Assembly: GCA_028867595.1 (NCBI GenBank)
Contig: JAGWGB010000003.1
Span: 50,094 to 114,093 of the forward strand
Origin: Nitrososphaerota archaeon
Lineage (GTDB): Archaea > Thermoproteota > Nitrososphaeria > Nitrososphaerales > Nitrosopumilaceae
Direction of reading: 5' to 3'
DNA: 64,000 nucleotides
Position numbers and translations under genes: made by a program. Position 1 is the first letter of the stretch. Every line of letters starts with the position of its first letter. The notes below the pieces were generated by a model. The model made no database searches. It was not told the origin of the DNA and was given only the letters and a program-made list of their open reading frames with translations. Shown one piece after another: positions 6,860-52,750 of this stretch.

Positions 6860-7789
6860 TTGGTTTTGTATATGAAAACTTTTGTTCCCGAGTTTGTTTG
6901 GTTTGATGGGAAATTTGTAAGAGATAAGGAAGCAAATGTTTCTGTGATGACCCATGCAATACATTATGGAACATCAGTTTTTGAGGGGTTACGCGGATAC
7001 TGGAATTCTAAAAATCTTTACATTTTCAGACTACATGATCATATTAAGAGATTCAGAAATTCTGGAAAAGTATACTCCATGTCATTAAAGTTCACAGACA
7101 AACAAATGGCGGATGCAATAATTGGGCTTTGTAGAAAAAATAATGTAAAAGAATCTTGCTACATAAGACCATTTTATTTTGTTGGGCGCTATGGAATAAA
7201 TCTACATGTGACAGAAAATAGTCCTACTCATGCAGTAGTCGTTATGTTTCCCTTTGGAGATTTATTCAATAAAAATGGAATCAGAGCTGGCATTTCATCG
7301 TGGAGAAGAATTCACGATATTTCTACCCCTCCACTTGCAAAAATGGGTGGCAATTACTTGAATTCCATATTGGCCACCCAAGAATGCAAAAGAAATGGAT
7401 ATGATGAAGCTATTTTGTTAGATCATCTTGGAAACATAAGTGAAGCGCCTGGTGAGAACATATTCATGCTAAGAGATAACAAATTGATAACGCCATCATC
7501 TAGCTCTTCAGCATTAGAAGGGATCACAAAAGATTCGGTAATCAAAATAGCAAAAGATCTAGGTTATGAAACAATAGAGCGAGAAGTTCCCAGAACCGAG
7601 ATTTATTTTGCCGATGAAGTGTTTTTGACTGGTACTGCAGCTGAGATAACACCAATTATTTCAATAGATGGAAAAAAGGTTGGAGATGGAAAGGTCGGCA
7701 AAATAACACAACAAATTAGGCATGTTTATTCAGAAATTACAATAGGAAGAAACAAAAAGTATTCTCGTTGGATAACTCCAGTGTATTGA
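6860..7789 (+). CDS. ilvE: Branched-chain amino acid aminotransferase
   Basis: AIHYGTSVFEGLRGYWN, YIRPFYFVG, GGNYLNSILATQECKRNGYDEAILLD; true start may be the second Met (MKTFVPEFVWFDG). Confidence 0.9.
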   Translation: MVLYMKTFVPEFVWFDGKFVRDKEANVSVMTHAIHYGTSVFEGLRGYWNSKNLYIFRLHDHIKRFRNSGKVYSMSLKFTDKQMADAIIGLCRKNNVKESCYIRPFYFVGRYGINLHVTENSPTHAVVVMFPFGDLFNKNGIRAGISSWRRIHDISTPPLAKMGGNYLNSILATQECKRNGYDEAILLDHLGNISEAPGENIFMLRDNKLITPSSSSSALEGITKDSVIKIAKDLGYETIEREVPRTEIYFADEVFLTGTAAEITPIISIDGKKVGDGKVGKITQQIRHVYSEITIGRNKKYSRWITPVY

Positions 7790-34097: not shown

Positions 34098-35384
34098 TTA
34101 CCAGCGGCTTCTTAAACCGTAATAGCTTCTGCCACCTTCGCGGCCACCGCCATACCTTCGTCGTCCATCTCCTCTTCTGTCATCGCTTCTTCTTCCCCAG
34201 CTGCGAGATCTGCCATATCCTCTCCTTTGCGGCATCTCTCTTTTCAATGGGTCAGGTATCTTTACCTCAATTCCAAGCTCTTTGTTTAGATCACGCATTG
34301 CAACCTTGGTTTGGCTTGAGATTGCCTTGAAATCCCCAATTGAAGAATATGAGACTAGTGTAATTGCTTTGCCCTTTGCACCAGCTCTTGCAGTTCGGCC
34401 TATCCTGTGAAAGTATACCATATCATGGCTTGGCACATCATAGTTTACGACAAGCGCAACTTCTGGAACATCGATTCCTCTTGCTGCAACATCAGTTGCG
34501 ACAAGAATGTCTGCCTTGCCTTTTCTGAACATGTACATGGCCTTGTCGCGTCTAAACTGAGACATGTCTCCTTGAATTGAGACAACTGTAAGCTTGCTTG
34601 CCTTTTCCAGCTCATGTGCCACTCTTCTTGTTCTGTCCTTGGTTGAGCAAAAGACAATTGTTTGGCCTGAAGGATTTTCTTTGATAAATTTCAGTAAATA
34701 GTCTGTCTTTTCCCTGTCCTTTATTACTAGAAATGCCTGCTCGATTCCCTCACCGCTGAGGTCATCTGCATCGATGAAGATTCTTTGTGGGTTTTTCATG
34801 TACTTTTCTGCAAGCATGAGAATCTCTGGCGGCATTGTTGCAGAAAACAGTGCGGTGATGTGTTGCTTTGGTACAAGGTCCAAGATGAATCGTATATCAT
34901 CAATGAATCCCATGTCAAACATTGTATCTGCTTCGTCAAGCACTACATACTTGACGTGATTTAGCTTCACAGAGCCTCGCTTTATGTGGTCGATCAGTCT
35001 ACCTGGGGTTGCAACAACAATCTCGACGCCGCGGTCAAGCTCGTCAAACTGTACATTGATGCTTTGTCCTCCATAGATTGTTACGTATCGTATTCCAGAA
35101 TTTCTTGAAAACTTTTGAATCTCGCCTGTTATCTGTACTGCAAGCTCTCTTGTTGGTGCAAGAATGATTGCTTGAATTCCACCTTTTGGAACAATTGTCT
35201 GAATTATTGGCAACGAAAAAGCTGCTGTCTTTCCCGTACCTGTATGCGCCTGTCCGATTACATCTTGCCCAGACAGCAATACTGGAATTGCTGCTGCTTG
35301 AATCGGAAACGGTTCATCAAAATGGATCTCACTTAGCGCTGTAAGTATTGGATTCTTTATCCCTAATTCTTCAAATCTTGTCAA
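34098..35384 (-). CDS. DEAD-box RNA helicase with Arg/Gly-rich tail
   Basis: GQAHTGTGKTAAF, LAPTRELA, VLDEADTMFDMGF, HRIGRTARAG; tail RRGYGRSRSWGRRSDDRRGDGRRRYGGGREGG. Confidence 0.95.
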   Translation of the reverse strand: MTRFEELGIKNPILTALSEIHFDEPFPIQAAAIPVLLSGQDVIGQAHTGTGKTAAFSLPIIQTIVPKGGIQAIILAPTRELAVQITGEIQKFSRNSGIRYVTIYGGQSINVQFDELDRGVEIVVATPGRLIDHIKRGSVKLNHVKYVVLDEADTMFDMGFIDDIRFILDLVPKQHITALFSATMPPEILMLAEKYMKNPQRIFIDADDLSGEGIEQAFLVIKDREKTDYLLKFIKENPSGQTIVFCSTKDRTRRVAHELEKASKLTVVSIQGDMSQFRRDKAMYMFRKGKADILVATDVAARGIDVPEVALVVNYDVPSHDMVYFHRIGRTARAGAKGKAITLVSYSSIGDFKAISSQTKVAMRDLNKELGIEVKIPDPLKREMPQRRGYGRSRSWGRRSDDRRGDGRRRYGGGREGGRSYYGLRSRW

Positions 35385-50956: not shown

Positions 50957-51063
50957 GACATACAATGGTACAGTGCCACATTTAAAGAAAGCAGCAATTT
51001 CTTATGCTCTCTTTTGTGATTCGGATTAAATTATTTAAATTACCAAAATGTATCCCAAACTGT

Positions 51064-51978
51064 ATGAAAGAGCAGGGTAAAATTTGGATGAACGGCAAAC
51101 TTGTTCCGTTCAAGAACGCAAAGGTACATGTTCTTACCCATGCGTTGCATTATTCGACTGCAGTCTTTGAGGGAATCAGGTGCTACAAGACAACAAAGGG
51201 CCCTGCAATTTTTAGACTGCAAGAACATGTTGATAGGTTATTCAAATCTGCAAAAATTTACTCGATGAAGATCCCGTATTCAAAAAAAGAAATTTCTGAC
51301 GGCATCATCAAGACAGTGCAGGCAAGCGGACTGAAAGAATGTTACATCAGACCCATAGCATACTATAGCTATGGAGTTCTTGGACTCACGCCGACTCCAA
51401 ACAAGGTAGATGTGGCAATAGCATGCTGGGAGTGGAATACTGGAGAGTCAAGTGCCGGAAAGGTACGCGGCGCAAGATGTAAGGTTTCAAGTTGGCTTAG
51501 AATAGATTCCAGGTCACAGCCAATGCAGGCAAAAGCCGCATCAAACTATGCAAATGCTGCACTGGCAAGAGTAGAGGCTTTGAAGGACGGATACGATGAA
51601 GCAATAATGTTAAACTATCACGGCAAGGTCTCGGAAGGAAGTGCAGAAAACATCTTTACAGTAATCAAGGGAGAGATAGCTACACCTCCACTAAACGCTG
51701 GAATCTTGGACGGGATAACAAGGGACAGTGTAATCAAGATAGCAAGATCTGAGGGAATCAATGTTGTCGAGCGAGAAATAGACAGGGACGAGCTTTACAT
51801 AGCAGACGAGGTCTTTATGACAGGCACTGCTGCCGAAGTCAAGTCTGTTACAGAGATTGACAATGTTTTGGTGGGAGACGGAAAGCCTGGCCAGATTACA
51901 CGCAAGTTGCAGGAAACATTCTATGAAGCATCTCGCGGTAGAGATGAGCGATTCTCAGACTGGCTTGTACCAATCTAA
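51064..51978 (+). CDS. ilvE: Branched-chain amino acid aminotransferase (second paralogue)
   Basis: KIWMNGKLVPFKNAKVHVLTHALHYSTAVFEGIRCYK, YIRPIAYYSYG, ASNYANAALARVEALKDGYDEAIMLN. Confidence 0.93.
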   Translation: MKEQGKIWMNGKLVPFKNAKVHVLTHALHYSTAVFEGIRCYKTTKGPAIFRLQEHVDRLFKSAKIYSMKIPYSKKEISDGIIKTVQASGLKECYIRPIAYYSYGVLGLTPTPNKVDVAIACWEWNTGESSAGKVRGARCKVSSWLRIDSRSQPMQAKAASNYANAALARVEALKDGYDEAIMLNYHGKVSEGSAENIFTVIKGEIATPPLNAGILDGITRDSVIKIARSEGINVVEREIDRDELYIADEVFMTGTAAEVKSVTEIDNVLVGDGKPGQITRKLQETFYEASRGRDERFSDWLVPI

Positions 51979-52019
51979 GCCTTGAAAGGTTCAATTAAGA
52001 CGTGGAATATAATTAATTC

Positions 52020-52193
52020 ATGGTACTCTCAATGGTTGACCAACACAAGCCCAAGTGCTACATATGCAGCAATGTATTTGAAAACATAGAAGCGTTGAGG
52101 CGACATCAAGAAGTTGACCACAAAGACTTTGTAGAGTTTCACAAAAACATGGACGAGCACGGACCCGCACCAGGAGATGTTACGGTATTTTAG
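52020..52193 (+). CDS. 57-aa C2H2-type zinc-finger protein (below the ORF-track size limit)
   Basis: MVLSMVDQHKPKCYICSNVFENIEALRRHQEVDHKDFVEFHKNMDEHGPAPGDVTVF*: CxxC-x12-HxxxxH. Confidence 0.75.
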   Translation: MVLSMVDQHKPKCYICSNVFENIEALRRHQEVDHKDFVEFHKNMDEHGPAPGDVTVF

Positions 52194-52195
52194 GG

Positions 52196-52354
52196 GAAAA
52201 GTGTTCAGGCCCTGACGCTGAATCAATTTGTTGGTTCTGCAAAAAGGGACGACATCAAGAATGCATGGGAAAGATTCCTACAGATGCCAAGTCGGAAGGG
52301 CCTCATGACTGTACCTTTGACACAAAACTTGTAGACTGTCAATGCTCACACTAA
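52196..52354 (+). CDS. Cys-rich ORF with no visible start codon, in the -1 frame of the preceding zinc-finger gene
   Basis: EKCSGPDAESICWFCKKGRHQECMGKIPTDAKSEGPHDCTFDTKLVDCQCSH*. Confidence 0.5.
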   Translation, partial: EKCSGPDAESICWFCKKGRHQECMGKIPTDAKSEGPHDCTFDTKLVDCQCSH

Positions 52355-52534: not shown

Positions 52535-52660
52535 CAAAACTATCTTACATGACAAGATATCATAAAAATCAGTATGTCTCTTTTGAACAAACCTAAAAGT
52601 CTATATTCTATAATAGAAAGTTTTTGGGAATTTTGTCCAAGACCTTTGTATTAGAAGCAG

Positions 52661-52750
52661 CGGGTCTAGTGGGATTTGAACCCACGGCATAGGGATGTCT
52701 CTGAAATGATCATAAGAGTCCCTCGCTCTACCTGGCTGAGCCATAGACCC
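52661..52750 (-). tRNA. tRNA-Lys(CTT) with 16-nt intron at 37/38 (intron 52697-52712)
   Basis: Acceptor GGGTCTA/TAGACCC; BHB: AGGGA-CTCT-TAT-GA...TC-AGAG-ACA-TCCCT; spliced loop CTCTTAA. Confidence 0.9.

What the first reader, a model, noticed from the sequence alone, without database searches (positions are those of the whole stretch)
52020..52354. C2H2 zinc-finger gene followed by a start-less Cys-rich frame in -1 phase
The 57-aa zinc finger stops at TAG (52191-52193) within GTATTTTAGGGG. From the same place the -1 frame runs open as LGEKCSGPDAESICWFCKKGRHQECMGKIPTDAKSEGPHDCTFDTKLVDCQCSH*, with many Cys/His but no ATG/GTG/TTG near its start. Options: a frameshift in the T-run (one extra T would fuse both), a non-canonical start such as ATT, or a decayed gene. 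Neither frame is in the supplied ORF track.
Basis: partly seen in the sequence, partly recalled or inferred. Interest (0 to 1): 0.6.

Follow-up and report, generated by a model that had tools for sequence, protein, structure and literature searches.

The report
Archaeal gene lacking a normal start
In one lineage of soil ammonia-oxidising archaea, a conserved small cysteine-rich protein has lost its normal start codon in all eight species examined and is probably started instead at an unusual ATT codon that overlaps the stop codon of the zinc-finger gene just before it.

Summary
The Cys-rich frame is a real gene: relatives occur in 114 of 119 good-quality Nitrosopumilaceae genomes sampled, always open, and more weakly in a second family of the order. 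In nearly all relatives it begins at an ATG shortly after the zinc-finger stop. In the window's genome and seven other Nitrosotalea-related species no usable ATG/GTG/TTG start exists. These eight form one clade (bootstrap 98) whose sister clade keeps ATG, so the ATG was lost once and the gene persisted: synonymous sites are near saturation (pS 0.71) while pN is 0.08. That rules out decay and assembly error. A frameshift fusion is unlikely: no slippery site, and the zinc-finger stop is kept 8/8. The only near-cognate codon in all eight that keeps the conserved N-terminus is ATT at 52187-52189. It overlaps the stop (ATTTTAG, 7 nt) and lies 9-10 nt after an AGGAGATG Shine-Dalgarno-like site. Best explanation: a leaderless two-gene mRNA whose ribosomes, after the zinc finger, reinitiate at AUU. 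A screen of roughly 500 orthologous genes found no second case. AUU starts are known in bacteria; I found no archaeal example in the open library. Protein-level proof is missing and the protein's function is unknown.

The parts
51984..51997 (+). Conserved promoter-like element GAAAGGTTCAATTA (TATA/BRE-like); its TTCAATTA starts 30 nt before the zinc-finger ATG
   Evidence: TTCAATTA-like motif 29-35 nt before the zinc-finger start in the 35 loci printed; promoter role and leaderless transcript are inferred
52020..52193 (+). Zinc-finger gene, 57 aa, one C-x2-C-x12-H-x4-H finger, conserved C-terminus PGDVTVF, stop TAG
   Evidence: weak Pfam C2H2 matches below cut-off; conserved upstream of the Cys-rich gene in the genus
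52172..52179 (+). Shine-Dalgarno-like AGGAGATG inside the zinc-finger gene
   Evidence: duplex with the archaeal anti-SD AUCACCUCCU -7.2 to -8.7 kcal/mol in all eight no-ATG species; background 5th percentile -6.9. Also largely present in ATG species, because it encodes conserved PGDV
52187..52189 (+). Proposed ATT start codon, overlapping the zinc-finger stop as ATTTTAG (7-nt overlap)
   Evidence: 8/8 species of the clade
52187..52354 (+). Cys-rich gene, 55 aa from ATT, stop TAA; nine invariant possible zinc ligands (C15 C18 H23 C26 H40 C42 C51 C53 H55)
   Evidence: conserved family; purifying selection

Best explanation
The pair is a two-gene operon. A promoter about 30 nt before the zinc-finger ATG makes a leaderless mRNA (inferred). 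The first cistron encodes a one-finger zinc-finger protein. The second encodes a conserved 55-aa Cys/His-rich, probably zinc-binding protein. In most relatives of the genus ribosomes restart at an ATG about 5-16 nt after the first stop. In this clade that ATG was lost, by replacement with AAG or deletion (shown). The reading frame now begins at ATT inside the 7-nt overlap ATTTTAG (inferred). Terminating ribosomes, held by the AGGAGATG site 9-10 nt upstream, reinitiate there with initiator tRNA, presumably inserting Met. Translation of the second protein would then depend on translation of the first.
For: Relatives of the Cys-rich protein were found in 163/200 family genomes and 114/119 good ones; the family extends to a second family of the order at E about 1e-6 to 1e-11. 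Of 83 distinct loci, 75 have an ATG 9-14 codons before CWFC; the other 8 have none (one has only an internal GTG at codon -4). The 8 form one clade, bootstrap 98, sister to four ATG species. Within the clade pS 0.71 against pN 0.08 for the body, and third codon positions vary far more (34/41 against 9 and 8, Fisher p 5e-11). The segment from ATT to CWFC also behaves as coding: third-position difference 0.60 against 0.33 and 0.25, Cys kept 8/8 with TGT/TGC swaps, length differences only of 3 nt. Of all in-frame codons shared by the 8, only ATT and the Ile codon just before CWFC are near-cognate in all 8. SD duplex -7.2 to -8.7 kcal/mol before ATT. Zinc-finger stop kept 8/8. A screen of 710 matched ORF pairs, about 500 of them usable genes, found no other start-less conserved gene. 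Published work: reinitiation in Haloferax needs overlaps or very short distances, and ATT is named there as a possible overlapping start (PMC10666635).
Against: No peptide, ribosome-profiling or transcript data. The A of GTA that makes ATT is also kept in nearly all ATG relatives with Val there, so its conservation in the clade is not independent proof of start-codon use (control: 0 of 30 all-Val columns are GTA in all eight). The SD-like site is also present in ATG species. ATT is a weak start elsewhere (about 0.3% of ATG in E. coli, as cited in PMC10666635), and aIF1 in Sulfolobus discriminates against non-canonical starts (cited in PMC6237735).
Confidence: 0.72

Rival explanations
1. Programmed -1 frameshifting (or transcript slippage) near the zinc-finger stop fuses the two frames into one two-domain protein.
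For: The frames overlap in the -1 phase in all eight species and the phase is fixed in the clade (-35 or -32 nt), while it varies in ATG species.
Against: No X_XXY_YYZ heptamer in the last 12 codons of 7 of 8 species. The Phe codon can be TTC, which breaks the T-run. Re-pairing from GTA-TTT/TTC to GGT-ATT is not plausible. Relatives make two separate proteins.
Confidence: 0.07
2. Translation starts further in, at the Ile codon (ATT/ATC) right before CWFC or at another near-cognate codon, giving a shorter core protein.
For: That Ile codon is near-cognate in 8/8; the core holds most invariant residues. One species has GTG at -4.
Against: The segment upstream of it evolves as in-frame coding sequence and keeps the N-terminal Cys. 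Ile there is conserved in ATG species for protein reasons.
Confidence: 0.13
3. The second gene is no longer translated in this clade (decay).
For: No canonical start codon.
Against: Near-saturated synonymous divergence with strong amino-acid conservation and no stops in eight species.
Confidence: 0.02

Closest known systems
Bacterial genes with AUU starts (infC and pcnB from my own knowledge; Borrelia pncA/BBE22, PMC13398362)
   Same: Only plausible start is AUU; annotation misses or truncates the gene
   Different: Those are bacterial; here it is an archaeon, and the AUU overlaps an upstream stop codon
Termination-reinitiation coupled gene pairs in Haloferax and E. coli (PMC6728339, PMC10666635)
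   Same: Overlapping stop/start, SD motif inside the upstream gene, short distance
   Different: Known pairs mainly use ATG-type starts with 4-nt and 1-nt overlaps; here a 7-nt overlap with ATT. PMC10666635 only mentions ATT as a possible explanation for rare 5-nt overlaps
Same operon in Nitrosotalea devanaterra and N. bavarica (L059/L028, L048/L016)
   Same: Same two proteins in the same order
   Different: Second gene starts at ATG about 10 nt after the zinc-finger stop
C2H2 zinc-finger families PF13894/PF00096
   Same: One C-x2-C-x12-H-x4-H finger
   Different: Scores below the curated cut-offs

Membership tests
AUU-initiated gene | No ATG/GTG/TTG that could serve as start | tested here: met
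   8 species; one has an internal GTG that would remove the conserved N-terminal Cys segment
AUU-initiated gene | ATT conserved at a position where a start gives the conserved protein | tested here: met
   8/8, but the base is also kept in ATG relatives
AUU-initiated gene | Protein N-terminus or initiation complex mapped to AUU | not testable with these tools
   needs proteomics or ribosome profiling
Termination-reinitiation coupled pair | Stop and start overlap or lie within about 20 nt | tested here: met
   7-nt overlap in the clade if ATT is the start; about +5 to +16 nt in ATG relatives
Termination-reinitiation coupled pair | SD motif in the upstream gene | tested here: met
   -7.2 to -8.7 kcal/mol
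Termination-reinitiation coupled pair | Downstream output lost when upstream translation is stopped early | not testable with these tools
   needs a reporter experiment
Programmed -1 frameshift gene | Conserved slippery heptamer before the 0-frame stop | tested here: not met
   absent in 7 of 8; one non-shared chance match
Pseudogene | Relaxed selection, stops or frame breaks | tested here: not met
C2H2 zinc finger (PF13894, PF00096) | Pfam score over gathering cut-off | tested here: not met
   21.3 against 27 and 17.7 against 25.2 bits; the ligand spacing itself is present
Any Pfam/NCBIfam family for the Cys-rich protein | Significant profile match | tested here: not met
   none for the window protein; weak DUF6248 in 35 of 64 members, best E 0.011

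The most novel reading that the evidence does not exclude
A native archaeal gene whose obligatory start codon is AUU, fixed in a whole clade and used through stop-overlapping reinitiation; this would mean reinitiating archaeal ribosomes relax the start-codon check that de novo initiation imposes.
Probability: 0.5. Interest if true: 0.72.

Novelty: new variant of a known kind. Interest (0 to 1): 0.56.

Why it matters
If true, it gives a natural, conserved case for asking whether terminating archaeal ribosomes can restart at a non-canonical codon, and how much aIF1 proofreading applies during reinitiation. It also shows that small conserved archaeal proteins can be missed because no standard start exists: the gene is present in essentially all good family genomes, but in the window no ATG/GTG/TTG ORF covers it. 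The mechanism is testable by swapping single codons in a two-gene reporter.

Tried and rejected
Sequencing or assembly error in the T-run: rejected by eight species. Decay: rejected by pN/pS. Frameshift: no slippery site. Val-codon conservation as proof of ATT use: looked strong (0 of 30 control columns) but GTA is also kept in ATG relatives, so I do not rely on it. SD strength as a clade-specific gain: also present in ATG relatives. The first version of the genome screen used too strict a tolerance and missed the positive control; rerun with a better rule. One apparent second start-less gene (G128, L277) is a frameshift. Structure prediction gave low confidence (pLDDT 63.5), so no fold search was run. 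PDB sequence search gave only a chance-level desulfoferrodoxin match, E 1.1. Own-genome 16S was not found, so the anti-SD was taken from the published class consensus (PMC10783764).

Full report
What is there. The window lies in a 1.68 Mb genome of an ammonia-oxidising archaeon of the Candidatus Nitrosotalea group: the genome search places 36 other species in its genus, and matching records in the named collection are N. devanaterra, N. bavarica and related MAGs. At 52020-52193 is a 57-aa protein with one C-x2-C-x12-H-x4-H finger. In the -1 phase, open through ATT 52187 to TAA 52354, is a Cys/His-rich frame.

The Cys-rich frame is a gene. A protein search of 200 family genomes found it in 163 (114 of 119 good ones), once per genome, never with an internal stop in the matches listed. 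A profile search across the class found it also, more weakly, in a second family of the order, and not in two other families listed. In an alignment of 64 members nine possible metal ligands (C15, C18, H23, C26, H40, C42, C51, C53, H55) are invariant. No Pfam or NCBIfam family matches the window protein. One or two zinc sites are a reasonable inference; function is unknown and the structure model was of low confidence.

The start codon. Among 83 distinct loci, 75 have an in-frame ATG 9-14 codons before the CWFC core. Eight do not: the window's genome (G000) and G113, G151, G123, G142, G128, G172, G138. A tree of MCM and aIF5B DNA puts these eight in one clade (bootstrap 98) with a sister clade of four species that all have ATG (bootstrap 100). 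So the ATG was most simply lost once: the position aligned with the ATG of G079 reads AAG in five of the eight and is missing in three. MCM third positions differ by 35-60% between G000 and the other members, so this is an old, stable state and not a recent lesion.

Still selected. In the eight, pS is 0.71 and pN 0.08 in the body; 34 of 41 third positions vary against 9 first and 8 second positions (p 5e-11). In the short segment between ATT and CWFC third-position differences are 0.60 against 0.33 and 0.25, the N-terminal Cys is kept 8/8 with synonymous changes, and length differences are single codons. This segment is therefore very probably translated, which argues for a start upstream of it.

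Which start. Codon by codon, only two in-frame positions carry a near-cognate of ATG in all eight: ATT overlapping the zinc-finger stop, and the Ile codon just before CWFC, which is conserved for protein reasons in ATG species as well. ATT is thus the best candidate. The overlap reads ATTTTAG (ATTCTAG and ATTCTGA in two species). An AGGAGATG-like site sits 9-10 nt before it with anti-SD energies of -7.2 to -8.7 kcal/mol, in the strongest 5% of random window 20-mers; the 20 nt before the ATG of relatives are mostly weak. Two cautions: the SD-like site exists in ATG relatives too, because it encodes PGDV, and the A that makes ATT is conserved there too. These features predate the loss of ATG; they may be what made the loss tolerable.

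Operon. A GAAAGRTTCAATTA-like element lies 29-35 nt before the zinc-finger start in the 35 zinc-finger loci printed, the distance expected for a promoter of a leaderless archaeal transcript (inference). I did not search for a separate promoter of the second gene. Work in Haloferax shows that reinitiation in archaea needs overlaps or very short distances, and its authors mention ATT as a possible overlapping start (PMC10666635, PMC6728339). In S. solfataricus aIF1 disfavours non-canonical starts (cited in PMC6237735), so the proposed use would be of mechanistic interest.

Is it general? I compared 869 kb from two clade genomes with 1.2 Mb of the ATG species G079: 710 matched ORFs, of which about 500 are usable genes. 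The only gene with a conserved N-terminus and no start codon was this one, in both genomes; one other candidate was a frameshift, and the rest were judged by eye to be shadow frames or to have a start slightly inside the alignment. The use of ATT is therefore gene-specific at this sampling, not a change of code.

Verdict. The gene and the loss of its canonical start are shown. AUU initiation by reinitiation is the best explanation (0.72) and needs one peptide or one reporter to be settled. AUU starts are known in bacteria (for example Borrelia pncA, PMC13398362); full-text searches of the open library gave no archaeal example, which is not proof that none exists.

Noticed in passing
G142:C4:23277-26435 (L145): MCM helicase gene interrupted by an in-frame insert of about 1.07 kb (open frame 1055 aa), probably an intein; no such insert was evident in the other full-length MCM matches.
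   Followed up: no
window 52660-52750 (-): ARAGORN reports an undetermined tRNA with a four-base anticodon; by eye it fits tRNA-Lys(CTT) with a 16-nt intron after position 37.
   Followed up: partly
window 6860-7789 and 51004-51978 (+): Two class IV aminotransferase (IlvE-like) genes in the same window; the second directly precedes the zinc-finger operon.
   Followed up: no
L277 to L279, about 34660-34900 of the joined stretch (G128): A gene whose N-terminus lies in another frame, so a frameshift or assembly indel in that genome.
   Followed up: partly
L013, L014, L016, L028 and others: In many Nitrosotalea the zinc-finger stop is followed directly by an out-of-frame ATG (TAGATGA) giving a very short ORF that overlaps the real ATG of the Cys-rich gene; possible decoy or regulator.
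   Followed up: no
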